64,000 bases of DNA from Watersipora subatra (Eukaryota > Bryozoa > Gymnolaemata > Cheilostomatida > Watersiporidae). The stretch's first letter is position 1, and each line of letters begins with the position of its first letter. Of this stretch, positions 6,301 to 63,300 are shown piece after piece. The DNA lies in NCBI RefSeq assembly GCF_963576615.1, contig NC_088708.1, positions 49,463,196 through 49,527,195 of the forward strand, in the 5' to 3' direction. Made by a program: the position numbers and the translations under genes. Below the pieces are notes generated by a model that did not search any database, was not told where the DNA came from, and worked only from the letters and a program-made list of their open reading frames with translations.

Positions 6301-9300
6301 TATTTTATATAATAATATATATTTTATAATTATATATTATTATATGTTAATTATAAATTTTATATATAATTAATTATATATTATTACATATTTTTAACAT
6401 ATAATAATATATAATTTATAATTATATATTATTATATATTAATTATAAATTATATATATAATTAATTATATATTATTACATATTATTAATATATAATAAT
6501 ATATAATTTATAATTGTATATTATTATATATTGATTATAAGTTATATATATAATTTATTATATAATTAGTTATATTTATAAATTAATATATATAATATAT
6601 TATTCATATATATATTAGTTATGTATATATATAATTAATATCTATATATATAATTAATATAATTGATGAGGAAGTTGTTCATATGCTTTAATTATCAATT
6701 GAATAGGAGGTATTTGTACTCGGTCTCTCACTGTCGCTATGTTTCCATGGCGCGTTTAATCCGTAAGTTTGTGTCATCAGCAAGATGAAAACGTCAAAAA
6801 TCTGCAAGCCGAACAAGTTTTGTTACTCTCAAATTTTTAACGAATTTTTCATTAATGCGAAAGATAGAAACGGCACTTCAAAGGATTCGCGAGAAAATGC
6901 CGGGCAGGCTATTCCATTTTAAATATTTTTTACATTCAAGTCATTCCTATCTGTAAATCGTGCTGCTAAGTGAGACAGAAGTGCATCGCTATAACCTCTG
7001 GCTTTAAATTTCTTACCTTTTTAAAAAAGCTGCTGTGTTAATCCACAACACGCGAAAGCATGAGCGAGTTGCAAGAAATGGCTCTCTGATAGGAAGTGTC
7101 AACGAGTAGACAACTTATCTGTTCTTTATACGTCATGTTGAGCAAGGAGCAGACAAATCTTCAATAGCAATGTAACAATAGAGATAGTGTTCCAACTTAA
7201 AATTGAATAACAAGTTATGAACAATACTAAAGCGTTATACACTATATATAATGAATATAATATTAAATGAATATAGTTCTTGACTAAATATTGATAAACA
7301 ATTATGAATAACGCACAAAAATTAAATGGTTAAAGCTTTTAGCTTATTTTTCCACTGCATTGATTAGTTGACATTTACGAATAGTGCAAGTATTCACTTG
7401 TTGATCTACCCAACTCGTCCCTTCCTGTTGAGTTGATTATTTTTTATTCATGAGTGATAAGCTTCAAACAGATTGTGTACACAACTGCGAGCGATTGCGT
7501 GTAAGTTTATACATTGTAGTTAGTCAAGGGTTAGTTGTGAAGCGTGTAAGTTTATACGTTGTAGTGAGTCCAGGGATAGTTGTGAAGCGTGTAAGTTTAT
7601 ATGTTGTAGTGAGTCAAGGGTTAGTTGGGAAGCGTGTAAGTTTATACGTTGTAGTGAGTCAAGGGTTAGTTGTGAAGCGTGTAAGTTTATACGTTGTAGT
7701 GAGTCAAGGGTTAGTTGTGAAGCGTGTAAGTTTATACGTTGTGGTGAGTCGAGGGTTAGTTGTGAAGCGTGTAAGTTTATACGTTGTAGTGAGTCAAGGG
7801 TTAGTTGTGAAGCGTGTAAGTTTATACGTTGTAGTGAGTCGAGGGTTAGTTGTGAAGCGTGTAAGTTTATACGTTGTAGTGAGTCGAGGGTTAGTTGTGA
7901 AGCGTGTAAGTTTATACGTTGTAGTGAGTCGAGGGTTAGTTGTGAAGCGTGTAAGTTTATACGTTGTAGTGAGTCGAGGGTTAGTTGTGAAGCGTGTAAG
8001 TTTATACGTTGTAGTGAGTCAAGGGTTAGTTGTGAAGCGTGTAAGTTTATACGTTGTAGTGAGTCGAGGGTTAGTTGTGAAGCGTGTAAGTTTATACGTT
8101 GTAGTGAGTCGAGGGTTAGTTGTGAAGCGTGTAAGTTTATACGTTGTAGTGAGTCGAGGGTTAGTTGTGAAGCGTGTAAGTTTATACGTTGTAGTGAGTC
8201 AAGGGTTAGTTGTGAAGCGTGTAAGTTTATACGTTGTAGTGAGTCGAGGGTTAGTTGTGAAGCGTGTAAGTTTATACGTTGTAGTGAGTCGAGGGTTAGT
8301 TGTGAAGCGTGTAAGTTTATACGTTGTAGTGAGTCAAGGGTTAGTTGTGAAGCGTGTAAGTTTATACGTTATAGTGAGTCGAAGTTTAGTTGTGAAGCGT
8401 GTAAGTTTATACGTTGTAGTGAGTCGAGGGTTAGTTGTGAAGCGTGTAAGTTTATACGTTGTAGTGAGTCGAGGGTTAGTTGTGAAGCAAGCATCGGTGT
8501 TACCTGACTGTATAATGATCAGTATACCGTTAATTCTTCTATTACTGGTAAATGTGGTACTCGCTGGCATTAGATGGTATCGTAATCACCCTGTCATTTT
8601 GTTGCAGCTGGACGGGGAGGCGGGTGAGAAAATGAAAGAAGTTTGCGCCAACTTCTGTCGAAACCACTCTTACGCACTCAATGCTATCAGAGACAAGCGG
8701 AAGCGAGACCCTAAGCTCCATGAACTCCTCACGGTTAGTTCGTCAGGCGAACAGTTTTTGGGTGTGCGGATCACTTGCTGTGATTCATCAGTCAGTATAT
8801 CAGCCCCTTGTAAGAGGTCATCAATGTGCAGTTTATTGATCAGGTTTATGAACCTCTTTCCCGTCAGCAATAGCAAAAATCGATTTTTGCAGTTATTTAC
8901 TATGTAGGCTAGTACGCTTGCAGTCCCATAAAAGGTCATCCGGTGTAATAAGTATGTGAACAGTTATTCTTCAATTGGGCAAGGCGGTTGAGTGGCACAG
9001 TGCTAGCATGCCTGGCTGTATAATATAATATGTGAGTTCAAATCTTGAGTAGTGCAGTCTTTTTCCTAACGCTATAAGCATGGCCACAGATGAACTGACA
9101 CGACTCTTATTATAGTAAAGGTTGGTACAAGCCCCCCCCCCCATCATTATGACTAGTAAGCAATGGTTATCGTTGCAGGCAGCGGAGACGAATCCAATGT
9201 GTCGGAGACTGCAGTTCAAGGATCTCATGATAAGCCAAGTTCACAGGCTGACCAAATACCCTCTACTCATAGATTCAATGTGCAATTATACAAGTCGTGA

Positions 9301-18300: not shown

Positions 18301-21124
18301 TAGTCAATAAGTGAAACCGTTGCTGTAGCTGTATACAGCTGTGATTTATTGCAGAGCCTCTGGGCAACTCGCAAGGGGACAGAGCTGATGCAGCTGATGA
18401 GGTTAGTATATCCCCTGCAGCTTCATCTGCATGGCTTCCATTATCCGCGTTGGTGTTTTACGCTGCATAGCCCTTTCTATTCACCTAACTTGGCATGGGT
18501 CGGGCTCGCTGGTCCCTTAATTTTCACTTTTGAATGGTTGATGGTCGCACTCTGCACGTATCTTAAAAGCCTAGGGGTGAGGGGCAAGACTGCAGTCGCG
18601 TGTGTCTGTTGGTAGGGGCTTGTTGACAGTCACAACTGCTAGCCGTTTGGAAGAGTGGGTTGGTTACTAGTGCTGCGTCACTATCTCTCTCTCTCACACG
18701 CACTCTGTTTCTCCTAACAAACAGGTTTCCAAATTCGAGAGCTCGCAAGAGGAGGGTGAAAGGGATGCCAAATCTCTCCTTGTAGCCTCCATATCTGATA
18801 CAACGCTTCTCAAGCAATTCTTGTCTGTCAGTACACAAGCCGCTGCATTGAATGCCGCCCCCTCCCCCACACCTATCTTGTCTTCACCTGGCTCGGCTTC
18901 TAAGCAAGAGTCGAGTGTGACTACCGCTGCATCAACCGCGTATGAACAGTGCAACTCTGTGTTGAACAATCTCTCTCGGAGATTAAACTGTCTTTTGGTA
19001 GGTGGAGTTGTCTGATCCCATTCTGCCATGTGCATAGACATGGACATTGGCATGGATAATGTAATTACATCTCGTTATTGCGTTCATGTCGCTTAGGCAT
19101 CCGCCTCCTCTTAGGCTTGATTCTCCAGATTGGTTGGGCTAGGTAGCTGCTACATTTCATAGCGATTGCTAGCTTCTGATTGATTGGGCTAGGTAGCTGC
19201 TACATTTCATAGCGATTGCTAGCTTCTGATTGATTTATTTATTTGATGAACTTGCACAACTTTTAGTAGATTTTATCAGAAAGTATCAGTATTTTTCCAT
19301 CATTTGTGATTGTTTAGAATGTTTGAAGTGATCTGACTGCCAGGATGTTTCAAGATTAAAATCTACAAAACTTGATCGCGGTTAGAACCCTCAGATCAAG
19401 CCAAAGTACTATTATAGTTGCAAAAAGGCCGAGAGAATAGAGACGCACAGTGCTGCAACTTGAATGCATAAACCGATATCAACCATGGCAACTAGTGACG
19501 CCATTTCACATGTATTGTTCGTCTGAACATTTTCACTGCGATCAAGTTTTATAGGTTTTAATCTCGAAACATCCTGGCAGCCAGATCACCTCAAACATAA
19601 AAACAATCGCAAATGATTGAAAAATACCGATAATTTCTGATAAAATATATTAAATCTTGTGTAAGTTGATCTTGAAGAGCAGAGCATGTGCTAGCTGATC
19701 ATTGACTTATGCGTTCCCCTTTCATGCGTAACTTCAGCTTATTTGTCTTATTCACTGGTAACAGTTTCTATTGTCCCTAACTACATATATGACAAGATTT
19801 CCGTACTCTTAAAAACCAAATTGAAATGATTCGCCAGCATTCTCTGTACATCCGTAGCTTACTACCTTATTTTTTCTCTACTAACATGTGTTGGTGGCTA
19901 TTATTCTTGTCTCTCATCGCAACACCGCACACTCATGCGTGATTGGTGGGCGTTACAGGAAGTCGTGGAAGAGCAGGACAATGAACGAGCACGCTTGCAG
20001 CATCAGCTAAAAACGGCCGAGCAGCTCCTTACAGAGGCACCAAAAGATTCAGTTGACAGCAGACCCAATAGTTTCGTTTCAAATTCTTCATCTAGCACGT
20101 CAGTTGGCGATGCTGCCGACTCGCAGCCGCATGGTTAGTTTTTAGACTAAAAATGCCTTTCAGTGTGTTTGTGCTTTTGGTGGAAAATTAATTCATTAAT
20201 TCATGTCTAGCTTCTTTGTCTTTGGAAGACTTGTAGAAGCTTATAAGAATGGCATAGTTACATATTTGTGTAAATACTCTAGGTTATGATATTACCTGCT
20301 GTAACTTGTTTGGCACGTTGTAAGGTTTTTGTTGCTATCATCTGACATTGTTGGCTATGTCAAAAGTTTTCTGCTTGATTCGTGAAAACTCGTATCTCTT
20401 CATTCACTCTAATTCCTTGTTTATAGCAGCACCAAGCGACATGTCGGTTGCGATCAAAGGTAACCCTCCTCACCACTCCGCCCCTTCTCGAGCTGATATG
20501 ACTGACTCGGCTCATTCCTCGGCAGCCGAAAGTGACAGCGACGAAGAAGGCACTGTGTACGCTGACTCCAAGGAAGATTTTGCTGATGTTTGTAAAGACA
20601 ACAAACATGGCGTTCAGCGGCCAGAGAGCTCATTGTCGAATGTATCCAATGCACTGACAGATAATACATTAGTATCAGCAGACAATCTTTCTGATGACGT
20701 TGCGGACCATCCAACCGCTAAGGACGATCATATAATCAATGTTGGCAATGGTGACAATACAGCTGACAACATTCCCCACATACGAGTGAACAGCACAAGT
20801 CTGAGCATAGGGTCGGACTCCGACATAGAAAACACAAATATTGACGATGTTGTGACTGAAAACGCTTCTACCAATACCTTGACAGGGAGTGAACACACTG
20901 CCGCAGCCATGATAGTGCAGGAGGCCATGGAGGCAGCATTGGACATTATGAAAGCTGAATCTGCTAATGCAAATGAAACGGATTTGCCAGCCATCAGCTC
21001 TAACAATATAGATGTTAACTTTGTGCCTCTAGGCGCAAAGACTGTCGGCACCAGGTTATTATCAGACAGCGACATTGATGACAGCGACGAAACAGATGCA
21101 CTATCAGTTAACTCCCTAGATTAA
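1..21124 (+). CDS. ARHGEF12: Rho guanine nucleotide exchange factor, ARHGEF11/12 (RhoGEF2) type, 5'-incomplete
   Basis: Family role: activates RhoA downstream of G-alpha12/13 at the plasma membrane by GDP/GTP exchange. Exons read from the sequence: 1-82, 204-317, 2071-2097, 2759-2818, 3091-3200, 3330-3460, 4307-4488, 5888-6120, 8608-8733, 9179-9296, 9662-9840, 14834-15089, 16328-16415, 17087-17281, 17962-18020, 18355-18401, 18725-18997, 19959-20133, 20427-21124. All junctions are GT-AG and phases agree throughout, giving 1050 codons plus TAA. Domain order is C1, linker, DH, PH, Ser/acidic-rich tail with a short coiled coil (exon 19959). The N-terminal PDZ and RGS-like domains expected for the family would lie left of the window. 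The C1 argues for the invertebrate RhoGEF2 form rather than a vertebrate ARHGEF11 or 12; the symbol marks the family, not proven orthology. The 27-nt exon 2071-2097 is least certain, although skipping it would also keep the frame. Confidence 0.9.
318..2758 (+). other. RhoGEF introns, no other gene seen
   Basis: Apart from the 27-nt exon at 2071-2097 (in-phase, flanked by GGCAG and GTAAAT) this stretch shows only short open frames without recognisable coding character. No transposon termini or tandem arrays were spotted. Confidence 0.5.
3461..3560 (+). repeat. degenerate 12-bp donor-like tandem repeat at a splice donor
   Basis: Directly after the exon ending at 3460 the intron reads GTAAGAGGAT, then GTAAGAATGAGA, then several GTGAGAATGAGA-like units. 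The unit is about 12 bp and each begins with a 5'-splice-site-like GTAAGA or GTGAGA. About five imperfect copies precede ordinary intron sequence. Confidence 0.55.
4307..9840 (+). CDS. DH (RhoGEF catalytic) domain exons
   Basis: Exons 4307-4488 (end), 5888-6120, 8608-8733, 9179-9296 and 9662-9840 encode a complete Dbl-homology domain. It begins QEVINELLYTEKSHVRNL (conserved region 1), continues through FCRNHSYAL, and contains the conserved region 3 helix RRLQFKDLMISQVHRLTKYP that contacts Rho switch regions. It ends with QILDHVNLAVKDCENH. The match to LARG/PDZ-RhoGEF is close. The introns between these exons carry a MITE (4604-5506), an AT-rich block, a 45-bp minisatellite and a SINE-like fragment. 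Confidence 0.92.
4604..5506. mobile_element. TTAA-flanked MITE, copy 1 (903 bp)
   Basis: The left end reads AGGTTGACTTGCAACAAAA and the right end is its inverted complement, ending in GTCAACCT. Both ends abut TTAA (4600-4603 and 5507-5510). The inverted repeats continue inward, imperfectly, for over 100 bp (GTGATTACAAGC versus a TTGTAATCAC counterpart). A second copy sits at 57300-58173 with the same interior, including GATCATGTGACCCA and a CACAGGTGACCAACAGGC segment. There is no coding capacity, so it is non-autonomous. A TTAA duplication points to a piggyBac-type mobiliser, though a TA duplication (mariner type) reads almost as well because the ends are TTAAA/TTTAA. Confidence 0.8.
6236..6665. 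repeat. AT-only low-complexity block
   Basis: About 430 bp of almost pure A/T with internal self-similarity at roughly 105 bp (TAATTATAAATT...TATATTATTACATATT recurring). It is rich in short palindromes and lies in a RhoGEF intron. No gene. Confidence 0.8.
7498..8489. repeat. 45-bp minisatellite, about 22 copies
   Basis: The unit begins GTGTAAGTTTATACGTTG, then TAGTGAGTCGAGGGTTAG and TTGTGAAGC. Copies are near identical, with one common variant (GTCGAG/GTCAAG). Because 45 is a multiple of three, an open frame runs through the array, giving a spurious 15-residue repeat (VSLYVVVSRGLVVKR). Each unit contains two perfect 5'-splice-site cores on the sense strand of the RhoGEF gene, GTAAGT and GTGAGT. 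The array sits in the intron between DH exons 5888-6120 and 8608-8733. Confidence 0.95.
8978..9065 (+). mobile_element. tRNA-derived SINE-like fragment
   Basis: A pol III A-box-like element (TGGCACAGTGCTAGC) is followed about 40 bp downstream by a B-box match (GAGTTCAAATC). Spacing and motifs resemble the tRNA head of a SINE. No cloverleaf could be made convincing, so it is not called a tRNA gene. It lies in a RhoGEF intron. Confidence 0.4.
10905..11050. mobile_element. half copy of the 19245-19671 fold-back element
   Basis: It shares a segment with the arms of the element at 19245: a GGAAAGTATT...TATCAG-like part, then CAAGATATTTGAAGATTAAA and AAAATTTGATCGCGGT. Only one arm is evident. It lies in the 5-kb RhoGEF intron. 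Confidence 0.5.
12126..13030 (-). CDS. possible nested gene: two minus-strand exons in a RhoGEF intron
   Basis: Two segments with coding character lie on the strand opposite the RhoGEF. The first, about 13020-12853, encodes EGYSEFSEHQVVKVEVKRAG and a basic/acidic RADRCQQRYAAEEDRKME, ending at a GTAAAT donor. The second, 12200-12126, is preceded by a TTACAG acceptor and encodes MPPTEQLGQCKNCHKWERET before TGA. The phase (0) is consistent. CKNC could be part of a small zinc site. No start codon is evident, so an upstream exon or a pseudogene is possible. The product is not recognised; it could be a fragment of a transposon-encoded protein. Confidence 0.35.
14834..16415 (+). CDS. PH domain exons of the RhoGEF
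   Basis: Exons 14834-15089 and 16328-16415, completed by the start of 17087-17281, encode the PH domain directly C-terminal to the DH. Key stretches are LVYDGALTWRM, IDLHVILLEEMLVLLQ, RLVLKCQSP, SMLVRQVAT, AIFIINTS and QIYDLVANSEQEKKRW, in the same order as in LARG. The PH of this family supports exchange and binds activated RhoA through a hydrophobic patch. About 5 kb of intron (9841-14833) separates DH from PH. Confidence 0.9.
15139..15858. mobile_element. putative 0.7-kb TIR element
   Basis: The left end AAAACACACTTGGCGATA is mirrored at the right end by ATCGCCTAGTGTGTTTGA, about 18 bp of imperfect inverted repeat. Next to each end are CG-rich words (TTTAGCGCGATATTGCGC; CTCCGCGCTCC). The interior contains an AT-rich non-coding segment. 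The target duplication was not determined. It lies in the RhoGEF intron between the two PH exons. Confidence 0.45.
17087..21124 (+). CDS. C-terminal tail exons of the RhoGEF
   Basis: Seven exons encode a low-complexity Ser/Thr/Asp-rich tail after the PH. Exon 19959-20133 contains a short heptad-like segment (EEQDNERARLQHQLKTAEQ) that may be the homologue of the C-terminal coiled coil used for dimerisation in PDZ-RhoGEF and LARG. The final exon (233 codons incl. stop) is rich in S, D and N, with repeated acidic clusters such as SDSDEE and SDSDIDDSDE typical of casein-kinase-2 sites. The tail is the least conserved part and the homology call rests on the upstream domains. Confidence 0.75.
19131..19230. 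repeat. two-copy 50-bp tandem duplication
   Basis: TTGGGCTAGGTAGCTGCTAC and the following TTTCATAGCGATTGCTAGC occur twice in direct succession with a 50-bp period, almost identically. It lies immediately left of the fold-back element at 19245. Confidence 0.85.
19245..19671. mobile_element. fold-back MITE, 427 bp
   Basis: The two ends form an inverted repeat of about 165 bp per arm. The left arm runs GATGAACTTGCACAAC, through TTTTATCAGAAAGTATC and GCCAGGATGTTTC, to AAAACTTGATCGCGGT. The right arm is its complement with roughly 15 percent differences. About 80 bp of unique DNA separates the arms. It lies in a RhoGEF intron, and a related half copy is at 10905-11050. Confidence 0.75.
20318..20398 (+). 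repeat. 75-bp segment duplicated at 22111-22182
   Basis: The intron just before the last RhoGEF exon contains TGACATTGTTGGCTATG, then CAAAAGTTTTCTGCTTGATT and CGTGAAAACTCGTAT. The same words recur, nearly identical, at 22111-22182 beyond the gene end. Confidence 0.85.
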
Positions 21125-35700: not shown

Positions 35701-36713
35701 AACTGGAAACCTTATTGAAGTAAGTCTGTAGATGCTGTAAGTCAGTAAGTGCTGTCTGTAAGTTATATAAAGTTACCACTATTATCGTCAAATGGTACAG
35801 CCAGAGATCGAACACAGACAGCGCATTGTACTAGCAATATAAGAATTTCTTTTAATTTAGGTTAATTTTTTAAGTTCTCTCTTATCTTGAAGGATAAAAA
35901 TCTACTCACAACAACAGCCCTGAGTTACCTTGACAAAGGAGTATTCTAATGACGCCATTGTTGTCCCTAGTGGCCCATGTTTCACAAAATTGTCATATTT
36001 AAATATTGGTAGGCTAGTGTCCCTGAGTACCCTTTAAATTTATCGGATGTCTATGACATGAAGAGTTGTACAGTGTGAATTATAGCGATGGAAAGTTAAA
36101 TTGTATCCTTTTCAGTTATTTACCTTTTGAACCCTTGAAAACCGCAGAAGGTACACGAGAAACTGCTTCGGAAAAGCATATGGTATCTCAACAACCAGCT
36201 AAACTTTTGCATTATATAGCACTCTGAGGCTCAACGTCAAAATGTTAGAATTTTTGATAGACTTTAAAAGATGGTAAGCGTTACTGCGGCAGTGACTTAG
36301 ATTGTTCTGAAACTCATATTGATACTGATTTTTCAAAGCGTGAACCTAAATAATAAGTAATAATATTAATAATGGCTAATAATAACGATTGGCTTCTACT
36401 TAAAACTAGTGAATGTTGATTCACTGATATCCAGCGTAGCTTGATATAAGTTCGAGTAGCCGTAACCCTAACCAGTAACTGACAGCTATGCTGTCTCTTA
36501 GCATCAAGTTTTCTCATTTTTCATCGTGTTTATCATCCCATTTGAAGCTACATGCGCTACAAGTCTACAGCTCAGTCTTCCACCTGTTTACAGCGAATTT
36601 TTGAAAATGATTTAACAAAGCTTACCCTCTTCTTCCGGATCGATGCAGTTCTTTTTCGCGTATGCTACTTTACGTCTGCTCATGTTGGCTCTTCTACTCG
36701 CGACGAACGCCTC
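26910..36713 (-). CDS. MYLK: myosin light chain kinase-like Ser/Thr kinase with calmodulin-binding tail
   Basis: Predicted to phosphorylate myosin regulatory light chain under Ca2+/calmodulin control. Exons on the minus strand: 36713-36626, 35147-35057, 33598-33395, 31705-31564, 31131-30932, 30077-29925, 28810-28687, 27449-26910; phases match and give 513 codons plus stop. The kinase domain is complete: LGRGKFGEV loop, AAK lysine, HLDMKPEN catalytic loop, DFG, MAPEV, MWSVGVICYVL. It is followed by ARRKWK then KAIRAIVAMNRL, the MLCK calmodulin-binding helix, and a basic Ser/Arg-rich tail of about 150 residues ending GGKRI. No Ig or FN3 domains are seen on either side, so it resembles short MLCKs (MYLK2/3/4-like). 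The first Met visible is in exon 36713 (NMSRRKVAY). Upstream coding or 5' UTR exons may exist. The paralogue is not resolved. Confidence 0.88.
27647..28061. mobile_element. fold-back element, about 415 bp, in a kinase intron
   Basis: The left arm starts GTAACGGTGCATCTTAGGTC, then GGTACAACGCGCATACAACG, and includes CACAAACATTGTGGATACAA. The right arm is the inverted complement (ending TAAGATGCACCGTTAC), over 110 bp per arm with a few mismatches. The loop is AT-rich. It is non-coding; the target duplication is not clear. Confidence 0.8.
28206..28505. repeat. 19-bp minisatellite (CTAGCAACTAGTACAGTGA)
   Basis: About 15 copies with GTGA/GTAA variation, tailing into a degenerate AACTA-rich stretch to about 28615. 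It lies in the same kinase intron as the 27647 fold-back element. Confidence 0.9.
29467..29567. repeat. perfect 22-bp inverted repeat around 57 bp
   Basis: The left arm (29467-29488) begins CTATTTTTAAGCTAATC. The right arm (29546-29567) is its exact complement over 22 bp. The interior is non-coding. It may be a short palindromic mobile element; a structured RNA is less likely. Confidence 0.75.
29630..29712. repeat. (AT)n microsatellite
   Basis: About 40 uninterrupted AT dinucleotides in a kinase intron. Confidence 0.98.
34338..34900. repeat. 11-bp minisatellite (GTGAGTGGTGG)
   Basis: About 50 units of 11 bp, regular on the right (GGTGAGTGGTG/GGTGAGTCGTG) and degenerate on the left. The + strand carries a GGTGAGT splice-donor consensus in almost every unit. 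The host kinase gene is on the minus strand, so these donors are antisense to it. Minus frames give a spurious Thr/His/Pro repeat. Confidence 0.92.
35055..35057 (-). promoter_or_regulatory. non-canonical GC 5' splice site (AG|GCAAGG)
   Basis: The exon encoding GEILGR ends CTCGGCAG followed by GCAAGG. Joining at this GC donor to the acceptor at 33599-33600 restores the glycine-rich loop LGRGKFGEV exactly. No GT donor nearby does so. AG|GCAAG is the known consensus for the minor GC-AG class of U2 introns. Confidence 0.8.
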
Positions 36714-38078: not shown

Positions 38079-40711
38079 TCCCTTTGAGTCCTTATGTCCC
38101 CCTCAGAGGACAGTCATAAACTATACAGTATCATCAACAAAAATGAATTATAGAAACTAAGAACCATATTTCCTATTTAAGGGACAAATTGTGAGTTGTT
38201 CTCTCACAATTTTATATTTGCTACCTCCTTCAGTAGAGAACTACAACAAAAACAAAATGGCTGCTTCCTGTTCTGATCCATGTGCCTCAACTTCTTCAGG
38301 TAAATTCTTCAATTAACTAAGTTTTTCTAGTGTTTAAAAAGTTTTGATTAGTTATTGTTGCTGTGAACATATTCCTCTATCACAAGCTCAAAAAAGCTTT
38401 GCAAAAACGTTTTTGCTACTGTTTTTATTGAAAATAATTTTTCAATGTCCCCCACAAGGGACATTGGGTTTTGATGCCTATGAATTAGATCAACTATAAA
38501 TTTAAAGTTATGGTGAATGTTTCTTTCTAACAGCTTTTTCATCTTATTTAATGGTTTTTATTTCATGTTAGCTAAAAAAGTCTTTCACATTCCCACTAAA
38601 TATTTTGCTGAATAGCTATAATTAAAAATACTGAAATAAAATAAATTTCGATTATCTTTACTATTAGGATTAATGTTAAACCTGAAGCATTTTTGTTTTT
38701 ATTCATTTTAGGACTACCAAGGAAAAGACCATCAGGAAATTTAACTGACATTGATGCCATTGATGTATTAGAACGGCTTGACGACTCTGACCTAGACTTA
38801 TGTTCAGATGACAGTGATGCAGATGTAGATTATGACCCTAGCAGTGCATCCCTATTGAATCATTCCGAGGAATCAGATGATGATGTTGAGCCACCACCAT
38901 CAAAAAGGAGCAAAAAATCTTTAAAAAAAACATGCTCTTTCCGCAAAAGTGATAGCTTTGCCAGCAAGTTCAAAGTATTACATCAAACTGCTGAGATGGA
39001 TGATTGTGAAAGCCCAGTAGAAGCCATTGGCAAGTATTTTTCTAATAAAATATTTGAGTCAATGGCGGATTTAACCAATCGCTATCATACTCAGCATTCA
39101 GGTAAATCTCTGAAGGTTACGCCTGCTGAGATCAAAACGTTTTTTGGGATCAGCTTGGTAATCGGATGCATCGGCATGAAGCGCCTCAGGATGTATTGGG
39201 AAAAGAAAACCAAAGTGCCTATTGTTGCAAATGCGATGACTAGAAATCGTTTTTTTAAGATACGGAACAACTTGAAAGTTGTAGATAATGCGCTCATAAG
39301 TGAAGAAGCTAAAAAAGAGGACAGGTTGTGGAAAGTTACACCATTAGTGGAGCATATCAGAAATATCTGCACTGAATTACCGCGAGAAAATTTCTTAAGC
39401 ATTGACGAGCAGATGATTTCATTCACAGGCAGGTGTCCAGCACGGCAGTATGTTCCAAGGAAACCAAACCCCACAGGTTTAAAAAACTTTGTTTTGGCGG
39501 GTTCAAGTGGACTAGTTTATGATTTTGAAATTTATAGAGGAGAAGGAACATTTGCTAAATTCAAGTTAAAAGATGGATCAGGAGGGCAAGGAGTAGGAGC
39601 GGTGCTTCGTTTAACAAAAGATTTAGGGCCAGGCAAGCATGTGTTCTGTGACAGGTTTTTTACAACAATTCCACTGATTGAGCATTTAGCCAAGCAAAGT
39701 ATCTCTCTTACTGGAACGATAAGTGCTAAATATGTGCCAGTGCAGTTCTCTTCTGACAAGGTCATGAAATCAAAAGGAAGGGGCACAATGGAGCAATTTG
39801 TTACAGTGAGTAGAGGGAATGAACCAATTAGCATCGTAAAATGGTTCGACACAAAAAGCATTTTAATGGCGTCTTCTTTGCATGGATTGCATCCAGTTGA
39901 AGATTGTAAAAGATGGTGTAAGCAAAAAAAGCAATTCATTACTGTACCCAGACCAGCGGTTGTTCAAAAATACAACTTATCGATGGGTGGTGTTGATCTT
40001 TGTGACCAAGCCATTTCTTACCACAGAGTAACAGCAAGGTCAAAACGATGGCCCATTCGTGTGATAAATCATCTTCTAGACTTAGCAGTTAACAACTGCT
40101 GGCTTACTCAGAGACAATCCAACTCTTCAAACAAACTCATGCAGTTATTTGACTATCGTTTCATTATGGGCGAACAAATAATAGCATCAGCAGCAAAGGA
40201 AGCTGATAGTGATTACTTGACGGATGACGAGCTACAAACTACCAGAAAAATAGTTCCACTTCCAATGGCGTACAATCGGGAAAAGGGAGCAAAACATTTG
40301 CCAGAAGCAGTGAAACTGAATAATAGTGGTCGTTGTAGACGAGAAGGTTGCTCGAACAAAACTAGCATACGCTGCACAAAATGCAATGTTTTTTTGTGTA
40401 TCAATGCAAGCAGAAATTGCTTCATGTTATTTCATAAAAGTACCTGCTAGTTTTGCTTACAATTTTAAATTGTTGATTTCTGTTTCATGCCTTTATGCTT
40501 AGTTTTAATGTTGCATCTATAACAAGTGTTTTAGACCACTTTTATAGTCACCGAGTTCCAGTGTCCTCTACAGGGGACAGTCAGTAGTGCTGCCGATAAT
40601 ATACATTTAGAAAGAAAACTTGGTTTTATGTGTTATTTTGTCTAATTTTGTCATAGAAACATAATTGCAAGTTTAAAATATTTACTCAAAATCTCTTGGG
40701 TCTCAAAGGGA
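38079..40711 (+). mobile_element. piggyBac-like transposon, 2.6 kb, apparently complete
   Basis: Terminal inverted repeats start TCCCTTTGAG at both ends and the same tetranucleotide TATA flanks each end (38075-38078, 40712-40715). The GTCC..GGAC hairpin words near each end (ATGTCCCCCTCAGAGGACA; GTGTCCTCTACAGGGGACA) look like subterminal repeats. The element encloses a transposase gene without stop codons or frameshifts. The related right arm of the surrounding inverted repeat lacks the insertion, which confirms the limits. piggyBac normally duplicates TTAA; here the flanks are TATA. Confidence 0.8.
38257..40450 (+). CDS. piggyBac-family transposase, two exons, 593 aa
   Basis: DDE transposase that excises and inserts its element. 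Exon 1 (38257-38299) encodes MAASCSDPCASTSS and ends at GTAAAT. A 412-bp intron closes at TTTTAG and exon 2 (38712-40450) continues GLPRKRPSGN in phase. This start is preferred over the in-frame TTG at 38693, whose first codons are simply the intron's pyrimidine tract. An acidic N-terminal region precedes the DDE_Tnp_1_7 core, with DEQM (D246), CDRFFTT (D328) and GGVDLCDQ (D443, D446) in the expected catalytic positions. The C-terminal Cys-rich finger reads CRREGCSNKTSIRC, CTKC, C..C..FH. The length is typical (T. ni transposase is about 594 aa). It is intact, so the element may be active or recently so. Confidence 0.9.
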
Positions 40712-47749: not shown

Positions 47750-47812
47750 TTTTGCTACAGTAAGTTGTTGCTACAGTAAGTTGTTGCTACAGTAAGTTGT
47801 TGCTACAGTAAG
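47750..47812. repeat. 16-bp tandem TTGCTACAGTAAGTTG, four copies
   Basis: Four near-perfect units, each containing CAGTAAGT, a consensus 5' splice site on the + strand. The location is between the kinase and QRICH2-like genes. Confidence 0.9.
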
Positions 47813-57300: not shown

Positions 57301-60300
57301 GGTTGACTTGCAACAAAATTCACATTACAGTTATTTGGTATCAAAAGATTCACCATGTCTTACTCTGTTGTGTTGTAAGAGCCAAATATATGGAAATGTG
57401 ATTACAAGCTCTTAAAAGCTCAAAAACGAAAAGCCGTCATAGATTGGAATCTCTTTATTTCGATGACGTAACCACGAAATTTGGTTATCGTCTTGTCACG
57501 TATGTTCTCACGTGAATTGAAAGGCCAATACAAAGCTCAATATAAAACTTATCGTAGTACTAGTTTCTGACAAACACTTCGAGTTTTACCGAAGACCCCG
57601 TATCAAATATAGATGCTCGCTATTTTACAGTTTTGTTTCGGTTTGGTCTAGTCGGCAAGTCGTAATCTGATCATGTGACCCAATACTTTGCAAATAATTT
57701 TTGCAGCAGTTTTCGATTATCACAGGTGACCAACAGGCTCGTCATGATTATCAGACAATGATATGTACTGCTTCAAGCTAAGGCTAAAAATTAAACAAAT
57801 TTTTACAGTAAGTTATAAGATATCACTGCTAAAAGTGACAGCATTACGATGACGACAAAACAGACGCGTAAGAACAATAGACATGGTTTTATTGAATGCG
57901 TGAAGTATATTTGTGAAAATATTCGACGAATAAGGTTGCATGAAAGTGTAAACAGAAACCATCTTTCACAACTACATCACATTTGAGCCGTTTTGGAAAG
58001 GGAATCCAAACTATGGCGGTCTCATGTGGCTGCGATTTTCTGTTCGTTTTTGAGCTTTTAAGAGCTTGTAATCACCTTTCCACATATTTTGCACCTACCA
58101 CACAACAGAGTAAGACATAGTAAATTTTTTCATATCAAATAACTGTAATATGAATTTTGTTGCAAGTCAACCTTTAACACCCATATCGGCACCGATACCG
58201 ATTCCGATATTGAAATCGGGGCAACTCTATCATGAGTAAAAGGTCACCTTGTAAGAGCAGACAACTTTATAACTGCATTTTTCACCTAAAGGCTGTGAAA
58301 CTGGTAGAAAATGTTACATATAGTTTGTGTATTAAACAAATTTGAGGTAGAAATCCAAAATTAAGGTTGAGAGATCTGAGTCCAACCTACCTCCAATTAA
58401 ATTCTTGCTCCAAATTTTTGACCTTAAATCTGAGCCCGTTGATCGAATCTTCTAGAATTTTGTTGGTTCGTTTAAAATACTTCATATCGACTAACTCAGC
58501 TATGTCTCTTTTGTCACTCTTCATGGACAGTGCAAACTTGAGATAGTCTCTGTCTACCTTCTGTGATGAAACATGCCTGTAAATAACTCATACTTACTGT
58601 AGTTATATTAGATGTGTTACTTCCTGTAGTTATATTAGATGTGTTACTTACTGTAGTTATATTAGATGTGTTACTTACTGCAGTTATATTAGATGTGTTA
58701 CTTACTGTAGTTATATTAGATGTGTTACTTACTGTAGTTATATTAGATGTGTTACTTCCTGTAGTTATATTAGATGTGTTACTTACTGTAGTTATATTAG
58801 ATGTGTTACTTCCTGTAGTTATATTAGATGTGTTACTTACTGTAGTTATATTAGATGTGTTACTTACTGCAGTTATATTAGATGTGTTACTTACTGTAGT
58901 TATATTAGATGTGTTACTTACTGTAGTTATATTAGATGTGTTACTTACTGCAGTTATATTAGATGTGTTACTTACTGCAGTTATATTAGATGTGTTACTT
59001 ACTGCAGTTATATTAGATGTGTTACTTACTGTAGTTATATTAGATGTGTTACTTACTGCAGTTATATTAGATGTGTTACTTACTGTAGTTATATTAGATG
59101 TGTTACTGACTGCAGTTATATTAGATGTGTTACTTACTGCAGTTATATTAGATGTGTTACTTACTGCAGTTATATTAGATGTGTTACTTACTGCAGTTAT
59201 ATTAGATGTGTTACTTACTGTAGTTATATTAGATGTGTTACTTACTGCAGTTATATTAGATGTGTTACTTACTGTAGTTATATTAGATGTGTTACTTACT
59301 GTAGTTATATTAGATGTGTTACTTACTGCAGTTATATTAGATGTGTTACTTACTGCAGTTATATTAGATGTGTTACTTACTGCAGTTATATTAGATGTGT
59401 TACTTACTGTAGTTATATTAGATGTGTTACTTACTGCAGTTATATTAGATGTGTTACTTACTGTAGTTATATTAGATGTGTTACTGACTGCAGTTATATT
59501 AGATGTGTTACTTACTGCAGTTATATTAGATGTGTTACTTACTGCAGTTATATTAGATGTGTTACTTACTGCAGTTATATTAGATGTGTTACTTACTGTA
59601 GTTATATTACTGTTTGTTTGTATTATCATCAAAAAATAAAAAAAACATAATAGAAAAATCAATCTATATTTAATGATGAGGGCCCACATGCACAATAGCG
59701 TAGCTAGTCAAGGTGCAGAGCCCGGGTAGACAGTCAACAAAAATAAAAGTTCATTTACTGCAAAAAAAGCTATGTCAGAGAGTCAAGGAGCCATTGTTTC
59801 AGAGTAGTTCGGAAAACAGTGCGATTTCCAATCCGCCTTAATCCGACCGGCAGTCCGTTCCAGGCAGACGCCAGCTGGTAAGCCCAATGCCTGTGGCCAA
59901 CAGCGGAGGTCGAAGGTGGCAAGGGAAGAGAAAATTGAGAGTTTCTGGTATCATAAGGCGGATCTGGCTTAGATTTAATATAGCTTTTAAATTCAGAATG
60001 AGCCAATGTGCAAATATGTAAAAATATAATTCATGAATAGGTAGAATATTTGCTTTTTTGTAAAGATCAGAAGTACGATAGGTGGGGGGTTTATTAAAAA
60101 TTATTCTCAATAGTTGATTTTGAATTACCAAAATTTTATTAAGGTGACTCTGTGGTGCAGTTCCCCAAGCCTCAATACAATAGATAATTTTACTGTTGAT
60201 CAGACTGTTGTAATGCAAAATCAAAACATTTCTAGGCAATAAACCTGATGCTATATAAATCAGACCTAAGCTTTGTCTAAGTTTTGAACGGAGGCTGTCA

Positions 60301-63300
60301 ATATGGTCTTTCCAGCTTAATGAGCTATCAATGATAATTCCAAGAAATTTAACGTTATCTGAGTAATTCAGTTGTCTGTCATTTAAATAAACCACTTCGT
60401 TTAATTGAAATCTGTTTTGGGATTTTGAATTATCATGTAATTAGTTTTATCTACGTTTAACGTCAGTTTATTAGCAAAACACCAAAATTTTAACTTCTCT
60501 AGGTTCAGGGTGATTTGAGCCATGTCTCTCTTTAGATTGTTACTCTCAAAAAATAAAGTGGTATCGTCTGCAAACAAAATTGTTTCAAAAGAATTGATAT
60601 AGAGGAGGAATAAGGTAGGACCCAAGATAGATCCCTGGGGTACCCCACAGGTAATGTTTAGAGACTGAGATCTGACTTTGTTTACATTTACACATTGTGT
60701 TCTATTAGTTAGGTAGTGTTTTATTAGATCAATAGAGTTGTATTCAAAGTTTAGGTTTTGAAGTTTATGCAAGAGGATTGTATGGTCAAGGGTATTAAAT
60801 GCCTTCGAAAAGTCTATAAATATACCAATAATCACCAAGCTGGAGTTTAGCGCTGCAAATGCATTGTTCACAAATTCTATTAAGGCATGGTGCGTACCTT
60901 TGTTTGTTTGGAAACCATATTGGGAGCTAGATACTATATTTTCTTCTTGAATGTGCAATTGTAGCTGGGTGTTTAATACTGATTCGAACACTTTAGAAAA
61001 AATTGGGAGTATGGAAATAGGGCGATAATTAGTTAGACTGGATTTACTACCTTTGTTTTTATATATAGGTAAAACTTTGGCACATTTCATTTTAGAAGGC
61101 ACTGAACTAGTCAGGATAGATTGATTTATTATGTGCGCTAAAGGAGCGGCAATGAAGTCCGCGCTATCCCTAACTAACCCCGCAGGAATTCCATCGATAC
61201 CTTCAGCTTTGTGCTCATTTAAATTTTTTAGAGTTTGGCAACCAAGTCAGCATCAATTAGATGGAAAGTAAATGGTTTATGTTGCTTTTGCTCAGAGTAT
61301 GGATAGCTTGGACAGGATGGAATTTTCCTAGCTAGATTTGGCCCTATTTCAGTAAAGAAAGTGTTAAAAGAATTTGCTATATCTAAGGGTTCACAAAGGG
61401 TGTGTTTATCATTATCTATAAGCTTTTCAATAGTCGAATGACAGCTATTTTTGCGTCCACAAGCTTCGTTAATAGCTTTCCATAGCTTTCTAGGATTACC
61501 AGTCAAATCATTTACTAATTGAGTGTAATAGTCAGTTTTAGCCTGTCTTATTAAGCTAGACACTTTATTTCGTTGTTTAATATAGCGTGGTTTTAATAAC
61601 GGGCTAAAGGGGTAAGTTTTATGCTTTTGAAATAGCGCATTTTTTTTCGTATTTTTTTTAGAAGCGCTTGGTTAATCCACGGATTTTTAAATGTTTATAA
61701 ATGATTAGATGTGTTACTTACTGTAGTTATATTACATGTGTTACTTACTGTAGTTATATTAGATGTGTTACTGCAGTTATATTAGATGTGTTACTCACTG
61801 TACTTATATTAGATGTGTGACTTACTGTAGTTATATTAGATGTGTTACTTACTGCAGTTATATTAGATGTGTTACTTACTGCAGTTATATTAGATGTGTT
61901 ACTTACTGCAGTTATATTAGATGTGTTACTTACTGTAGTTATATTAGATGTGTTACTTACTGTAGTTATATTATATGTGTGACTTACTGTAGTTATATTA
62001 GATGTGTTACTTACTGTAGTTATATTAGATGTGTTACTTACTGTAGTTATATTAGATGTGTTACTTACTGTAGTTATATTATATGTGTGACTTACTGTAG
62101 TTATATTATATGTGTGACTTACTGTAGTTATATTAGATGTGTTACTTACTGTAGTTATATTAGATGCGCAACTTACTGTAGTTATATTAGATGTGTTACT
62201 TACTGTAGTTATATTAGATGTGTTACTTACTGTAGTTATATTAGATGCGCAACTTACTGAACAATCTCCCGGAAGGCTGTCAGCTCGCTATCATGCCTTC
62301 CAACTTTTTCTTCAACTCGATCAAACCGTTCATCATTTCGCTGTTCCGCCCGCTCTAATAGCAGTTTCTCAGCTTTGGACCTGTTTATATTATCTACAAC
62401 TTTAGAGAGCACCTGCTGCCTGTTAGGAGTGTCACCTGCAACAGGTGTCAATCAAATGTATTCCATCTACCAAAACTCATTTCTTCATCTATAACTGTGA
62501 TTTAGAAGTGTTATCACTGTTTAAAGGACAGATAATAGAAGAAGAGCCAAGCCAACATAGTTGTATACAAGCAAGGGTTAGTTGAATGTATGTGTTGCTA
62601 TTGATTATACAAGGAGAGTGCATGTGAAAGTTTGGGAGTAAATTTTAATTGGTAGTTGTGGCTCATGTAATAATAATTGCTTGACCTAGCATTAGTTCTT
62701 GTTATTCACTTGTGTAGTGAGTACTGTTAGTATTAAGTAAACCTAACTTTCATCTTCAGTTAAAAAGAAACAGTTGTATAAATAAAAAGATAAATAATGA
62801 CTGAACACAAACCATAATCATATTTTTAACAAACATAATTGTATAAAATAAATTAAGGTAAATGAAGTCTACTCAATGATTCCAAAGTTTTCTGTAAGTG
62901 GTAAGATGGACCATCTTTCCTCCCTTCATATTCAGCATCTGAAGACGGAACACCTTGAATTGAGCTTTGCTGCCTGTATCTTCTTGATGTATCCTCAGTT
63001 GTTCCTATCTATAAATAAGGCAAAGATAGGAAACCAGACAAACATTTAAGGTGCATTTTCTAATGAGAAAAGTTAACATTGACTTCATGTGATTCAACAG
63101 CCACCATTTAACCATTTAACTGTCTAACCGTTTCTTCATCTAACCATCTAACCGTCTCACAGTCCAACTCTCTGACCGTCGGACCATTTGACTGTCTCAC
63201 TGTCTAACCACCTAACTGTCTAACTCTCTCATTGTCCAACCATCTCACTGTCTCACCATCCAAGCATACTGTCCAGCCCTTGAAACCTATTCTCCCTGCC

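What the first reader, a model, noticed from the sequence alone, without database searches (positions are those of the whole stretch)
58577..62257. An intron built almost wholly of tandem 5' splice sites
Seen: on the gene strand the QRICH2-like intron starts CA|GTAAGTTGCGCATC and then repeats CA|GTAAGTAACACATC every 27 bp, about 58 times in two blocks, ending just before the acceptor. Leaving out the LINE, nothing else is in the intron. The first unit overlaps the exon end, so the array seems to have grown from the splice junction. Every unit is a consensus U1-binding donor. Known: minisatellites arising at intron 5' ends have, from memory, been reported in amphioxus as mirages. Inference: the array may act as a U1 sink or offer many alternative donors; any donor beyond the first would add in-frame 9-residue units.
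Basis: partly seen in the sequence, partly recalled or inferred. Interest (0 to 1): 0.78.

Follow-up and report, generated by a model that had tools for sequence, protein, structure and literature searches.

The report
Minisatellite intron grown from splice site
An intron of an animal gene consists almost entirely of some 58 copies of its own start signal for splicing, most likely a harmless repeat that grew from the exon edge in a genome full of such repeats; it could serve as a natural test of how cells pick the right splice site among many similar ones.

Summary
On the gene strand the intron runs 62257..58577 (3681 nt): a 27-nt array from the donor on, one LINE inside it, and a last GTAAGT that begins 21 nt before the intron end. 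Of 57 full units, 51 keep GTRAGT and 6 do not. The exons, joined at the first donor, match DUF4795 across the junction.

The reading is partly right. The array begins at the junction, but only 2 nt of exon lie in the unit. Later donors cannot add nine-residue units: the true frame gives CAG TAA. Downstream donors show no conservation.

This is a mirage-type junction minisatellite, as described in amphioxus. The same genome has others: at a FIH exon, a FAM135-like exon, a patatin-like exon and a GLDC acceptor.

No special affinity for splice sites is needed. Arrays cover 3.9% of 80 kb sampled; 1 of 37 unselected junctions lay in one. GTAAGT arrays exceed five control words 1.3 to 3.4 fold.

A U1 sink or regulatory role is unsupported. 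Donor choice stays open: decoys are predicted to pair with U1 no worse than the real donor.

The parts
62258..62435 (-). upstream exon of the QRICH2-like gene, ending ...ELTAFREIV-CA in phase 2
   Evidence: joined with the downstream exon it matches PF16043 DUF4795, 33 bits, E 5.1e-8, residues 23-121 across the junction; just under the 34.8-bit cut-off. The acceptor was chosen by eye (TTGCAG|GTGACACTCC); position.
62252..62257 (-). authentic 5' splice site, TTCA|GTAAGTTG
   Evidence: sequence and reading frame; use in RNA not tested
61704..62259 (-). first array block: 27-nt unit GTAAGTAACACATCTAATATAACTACA, 20.7 copies by TRF
   Evidence: TRF, unit table
59610..61703 (-). LINE-like retrotransposon inserted inside one unit; the flanks share TAAT. 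Edges approximate
   Evidence: reverse transcriptase PF00078, 98.6 bits, in the frame 60404-61246; flanks
58591..59609 (-). second array block: 37.7 copies by TRF, with a 14-unit (378-nt) higher-order repeat
   Evidence: TRF; 16 of 23 unit pairs identical at lag 14
58577..58597 (-). intron end: last GTAAGT plus ATGAGTTATTTACAG acceptor; a CTAAT branch-point-like motif lies 31 nt before the intron end, in the last full unit
   Evidence: the branch point is inferred
58391..58576 (-). downstream exon, HVSSQKVDRDYLKF... to ...QEFNW
   Evidence: DUF4795 match across the junction; donor AATTGGAG|GTAGGT chosen by eye, position

Best explanation
This is a junction minisatellite of the kind called a mirage. 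A segment starting at the intron's own 5' splice site was duplicated in tandem, by slippage or unequal exchange, until it made up nearly all of an intron that may once have been short; a LINE later inserted in it. It arose in a genome rich in minisatellites, so some fall on splice junctions. The copies inside the intron are neutral. The first donor is most likely the one used, picked by position next to the exon (exon definition), while the later donors are mostly ignored or their products destroyed. Shown: the array, its start at the donor, the reading frame, the lack of conservation of later donors, and further junction arrays in the genome. Inferred: the mode of growth, the former intron length, which donor is used, and neutrality.
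For: Array and junction. Frame. The first unit's variant (TTGCGC) recurs in unit 4, so the junction unit took part in duplication. Other junction arrays in the genome: FIH, where the unit is the last 23 nt of the exon plus GTAA (the exon matches FIH with 49.9 bits and identity over GDVLYIPMYW); a FAM135-like exon with 11 exon nt in the array and a 34-nt unit (next exon DUF676 18 bits, cut-off 20.3); a patatin-like exon with 6 exon nt (Patatin 12.3 bits, cut-off 27.7); a GLDC acceptor, 42-nt unit x4 including exon start. Background: 29 arrays in 80 kb of eight arbitrary stretches, 3.9% of sequence, against 1 of 37 unselected junctions inside an array. Without the starting case I read the 5' edge of 16 GTAAGT arrays (3 in the window; 5; 8): 3 of 16 start at a supported exon end, 5 of 16 with two ORF-only candidates. 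A rough neutral estimate gives 12 to 29%.
Against: No RNA data: which donor is used is unknown. Exonic homology of the unit here is only 2 nt, so growth from the junction rests on position and on GTAAGT, not on copied exon. The exon calls for FAM135 and patatin rest on sub-threshold Pfam scores and on recalled gene identity; the PDB sequences gave no relevant hit for either. The neutral estimate uses assumed donor numbers, a 30-nt period (the random sample's median is 21) and an assumed 20% share of GTAAGT donors. GTAAGT arrays are still the commonest of the six words counted, and at 26-27 nt spacing they number 2914 against 1345 for the reversed word. The edge test has no matched control.
Confidence: 0.72

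Rival explanations
1. An ordinary intronic minisatellite that arose elsewhere in the intron, holds GTAAGT by chance, and spread until it met the two splice sites, which selection protected.
For: The unit shares only 2 nt with the exon tail. Most GTAAGT arrays read do not touch an exon: 11 of 16 edges showed no exon end, one of them antisense to a VTI1-like gene.
Against: The array is in register with the authentic donor, and a chance sense GTAAGT in a 27-nt unit at this base composition is about 1% (my estimate from the word frequency). Other genes show units that copy exon sequence.
Confidence: 0.15
2. Splice junctions are preferred birthplaces of minisatellites in this genome, through transcription-linked or RNA-linked breakage, rather than random targets.
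For: GTAAGT triples are the most frequent of six words counted. At 26-27 nt spacing they number 2914 against 1345 for the reversed word. The nine-base CAGGTAAGT triple gives 363 places against 73 for its reverse.
Against: Divided by single-word frequency in 108.5 kb, GTAAGT scores 68.8 against 48.7 to 62.9 for four controls and 16.5 for TGAATG. The CAGGTAAGT places that were listed lie in only two arrays. 1 of 37 unselected junctions is close to the 3.9% random expectation, though 37 is few.
Confidence: 0.12
3. The array is a regulator: use of distal donors retains intron sequence with stop codons, so the gene can be lowered by nonsense-mediated decay, or U1 bound to the array suppresses premature polyadenylation.
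For: Retained units carry in-frame TAA. The common units' donors are predicted to pair with U1 slightly better than the first donor, -7.2 against -5.6 kcal/mol (U1 5' end recalled).
Against: Donors in the array are not conserved relative to the rest of the unit; 6 of 57 are lost. No expression data.
Confidence: 0.07
4. The later donors add in-frame nine-residue repeats to the protein.
For: 27 is a multiple of 3, and one frame of the array on the gene strand is open.
Against: The open frame is not the gene's frame; the gene's frame reads CAG TAA at once.
Confidence: 0.01

Closest known systems
Mirages of amphioxus (Adh3; globin genes BflGb6 and BflGb9; also mentioned for PGBD5 and TnC)
   Same: Minisatellite-like tandem repeats at exon-intron boundaries, 10-72 bp units in Adh3, many with AG/GT splice signals, at both 5' and 3' boundaries (passages of PMC3087553 and PMC3902484). 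This genome shows both kinds.
   Different: Here the array takes up nearly the whole intron (57 full units), shares only 2 nt with the exon, and holds a LINE. Normal splicing and instability, reported for mirages, were not tested. The founding Adh paper was not seen.
Tandem-duplication model of intron gain (Rogers 1989, as cited in PMC3087553; paper itself not seen)
   Same: Duplication of AG/GT-bearing segments places extra splice signals in tandem.
   Different: Here an intron seems to have grown; no new intron is shown.
Intronic minisatellites such as that in the first intron of earthworm metallothionein genes (PMC12783039, passages read)
   Same: Long tandem repeats inside an intron.
   Different: Monomers there average about 180 nt, and the passages I read do not tie them to the splice site.

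Membership tests
Amphioxus-type mirage | tandem minisatellite repeat at an exon-intron boundary | tested here: met
   27-nt array starting at the donor
Amphioxus-type mirage | the repeat unit spans the boundary and copies exon sequence | tested here: inconclusive
   only CA of the exon lies in the unit; met in FIH (23 nt) and in the FAM135-like gene (11 nt)
Amphioxus-type mirage | repeat units carry splice signals | tested here: met
   51 of 57 full units carry GTRAGT
Amphioxus-type mirage | mRNA is spliced normally despite the repeats | not testable with these tools
   no RNA data
Amphioxus-type mirage | length instability between haplotypes or somatically | not testable with these tools
   one assembly only
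Amphioxus-type mirage | cephalochordate host (where mirages were described) | tested here: inconclusive
   genome unnamed; PF00115 gave no match and PF01353 did not complete
Recursive splice site (ratchet point; consensus recalled) | acceptor directly joined to donor, AG|GTAAGT | tested here: not met
   the QRICH2-like unit reads CAGTAAGT with one G; the FAM135-like and patatin-like units do read ACAG|GTAAGT

The most novel reading that the evidence does not exclude
In this genome splice junctions are a recurrent seed of minisatellites, at donors and acceptors alike, and the spliceosome keeps using the exon-proximal site against tens of downstream donors of equal or greater predicted U1 pairing. 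That would make these introns natural tandem-competition assays showing that position next to the exon outranks donor strength; in some genes the units even have recursive-splice form (CTACAG|GTAAGT).
Probability: 0.3. Interest if true: 0.65.

Novelty: new member of a known kind. Interest (0 to 1): 0.45.

Why it matters
If RNA shows that only the first donor is used, introns like this one test the rule of 5' splice site choice directly: tens of donors of equal or better predicted U1 pairing, in one transcript, at 27-nt steps. The genome also suggests that mirage-type arrays can be an expected by-product of abundant minisatellites, so neither function nor a special mechanism should be assumed. 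They would be a standing source of intron length change.

Tried and rejected
Rejected: in-frame peptide units (stop codon at once). Rejected as a strong claim: genome-wide excess of GTAAGT arrays. The first control gave a 3.4-fold excess; further control words brought it down to as little as 1.3 fold. Rejected: my early impression that many arrays of the window start at exon ends. Of the window's three other GTAAGT arrays (7497-8488, 35720-35755, 47752-47812) none has a supported exon at its start. Rejected: that the chance rate of a GTAAGT array edge at a donor is well under 1%; given 362 arrays per Mb, my rough neutral share is 12 to 29%. A control with edges of GATAGT arrays could not be fetched, so the edge test has no matched control. 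Tried without result: naming the organism (PF00115 no match); PF16043, PF00063, PF03028 and PF01353 in the genome (not completed). PMC2871265, on placozoan repeats, does not use the word splice (passages). The founding mirage paper is not held. For a printed genome-wide survey of junction minisatellites I ran searches (and 84 on competing donors); I saw none in the rows listed, and one search listed 20 of 250 papers.
Full report
What is there. The intron lies on the minus strand, 62257 to 58577, 3681 nt. It opens with GTAAGTTGCGCATCTAATATAACTACA, continues in 27-nt units, is split once by a LINE (59610-61703) whose flanks share TAAT inside a unit, and ends GTAAGTATGAGTTATTTACAG. I count 57 full units: 50 GTAAGT, 1 GTGAGT and 6 without a donor. 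The distal block has a 14-unit higher-order repeat: 16 of 23 unit pairs are identical at lag 14. A two-unit pattern of the array has 34 exact matches in the 784-Mb genome, all in this intron.

Gene and frame. The two exons joined at the first donor give 123 residues that match DUF4795 (PF16043), 33 bits, E 5.1e-8, residues 23-121, across the junction; the curated cut-off is 34.8 bits, so this is just below it. DUF4795 as the QRICH2 domain is recalled. The PDB sequences held nothing relevant. The intron is in phase 2 (CA|G). Reading on gives CAG TAA, and each of the three added units that I translated gives another TAA.

Does the array keep its donors? Substitution types are 3 in the 6 donor positions and 8 in the other 21, one unit with a deletion left out. 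That is no sign of selection on the donors. Predicted pairing with a recalled U1 5' end is -5.6 kcal/mol for the first donor and -7.2 for the common units. In the FAM135-like gene it is -11.6 (first) against -13.7 (unit); in the patatin-like gene -6.0 against -12.6. So the decoys are no weaker. The energy is a crude measure: it also gave -9.3 to a broken GGAAGT unit, and four array units (TACAGTAAGTCA) score -5.6 like the first donor.

Other junction arrays in the same genome. A search for CAGGTAAGT triples led to a FAM135-like exon ending CCACCTCTATAG|GTAGGTGG, where the array starts 11 nt inside the exon and the unit is 34 nt. The next exon shows DUF676 at 18 bits, under its cut-off, and the intron after it also carries an array, starting 16 nt past its donor. 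The same search's other listed array, at 3.48 Mb, has no exon at its edge (L049). A search at 26-27 nt spacing listed ten arrays in the first 30 Mb of C1; I fetched nine edges. Of eight edges that were reached, two start at a supported exon end: FIH, whose last 23 exon nt plus GTAA form the unit, and a patatin-like exon (weak). One more is a candidate by open frame and acceptor only (L073). One lies 179 nt beyond the donor of an unidentified exon (L078; no Pfam match), one is antisense in an intron of a VTI1-like gene (L079; V-SNARE 30.9 bits), and three show nothing (L072, L074, L075). Of five earlier edges, one is the FAM135-like case, one is an ORF-only candidate (L051) and three show nothing (L009, L049, L050). 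Of three further GTAAGT arrays in the window none is at a supported exon end. Together that is 3 of 16 supported, 5 of 16 with candidates, starting case excluded; L077, whose edge was not reached, and the tenth array, not fetched, are left out. The exons were judged by eye, and gene names other than FIH rest partly on recall.

An unselected sample. Using E. coli GcvP and CarB as queries I read a 24-kb GLDC gene and 4.5 kb of one carbamoyl-phosphate synthase gene. By eye these hold 29 junctions (15 acceptors, 14 donors; the exons for GcvP residues 374-479 were not found) and 8 junctions (four exons; one weaker match not counted). 1 of 37 lies in an array: the acceptor of the GLDC exon GYNAHEFIIDF, with four 42-nt copies that include exon start. 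A methionine synthase gene was located but could not be fetched, and the second synthase gene was not read.

Is a special affinity for splice sites needed? In 80 kb of eight arbitrary stretches there are 29 arrays of period 9 or more, covering 3.9%; the window itself has 10.5%. If arrays fall at random, about 4% of junctions should lie in one. Triples of GTAAGT number 46318; five control words number 13804, 24339, 34701, 31973 and 35441. At 26-27 nt spacing the count is 2914 against 1345 for the reversed word, and for CAGGTAAGT 363 against 73, though the places listed lie in two arrays. These counts weigh long arrays heavily. Divided by single-word frequency, GTAAGT scores 68.8 against 62.9, 56.2, 51.0, 48.7 and 16.5. 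A rough estimate with 100,000 to 300,000 donors, of which I assume 20% to be GTAAGT, predicts that 12 to 29% of GTAAGT arrays start at a donor. The observed share fits, so random birth in a minisatellite-rich genome is enough, though a mild preference is not excluded and the samples are small.

Mechanism. Growth from the junction by slippage or unequal exchange is inferred from register, from the recurrence of the first unit's variant in unit 4, and from the other genes where exon is copied. Use of the first donor by exon definition is inferred. The amphioxus papers say that mirages do not disturb splicing (passages).

Verdict. A real and striking member of a known kind. The best value is as a natural assay of donor choice.

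Noticed in passing
L067-L069 joined (G000:C1:22279501-22303500), gene-strand 19012-19181: Acceptor-side mirage in a GLDC gene: four 42-nt copies of intron end plus exon start; the real exon is the last copy.
   Followed up: yes
L076 (G000:C1:19956133-19956832): FIH (HIF1AN-like) exon end repeated in the following intron: 23 coding nt plus GTAA per unit, 10.3 copies within the fetched stretch, which ends inside the array.
   Followed up: yes
L047 and L071: Units of recursive-splice form, pyrimidine-rich CTACAG|GTAAGT, in tandem at the starts of a FAM135-like and a patatin-like intron.
   Followed up: partly
L047 1-430 (gene on minus strand), intron after HGLDG: The next FAM135-like intron also carries a 37-nt array (11.6 copies in the fetched stretch), starting 16 nt after its donor.
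   Followed up: partly
window 38645-40447 +: Open piggyBac-type transposase frame of 601 codons (PF13843, 233.7 bits).
   Followed up: no
window about 58030-58160 and L009 upstream of its array: A shared stretch (CGTTTTTGAGCTTTTAAGAGCTTGTAATCAC...) occurs in both, seen by eye; apparently an unnamed dispersed repeat.
   Followed up: no
window 7497-8488 +: 45-nt array, 22 copies, 97% matches, three frames open over hundreds of codons (two on +, one on -); not at a supported exon end.
   Followed up: partly
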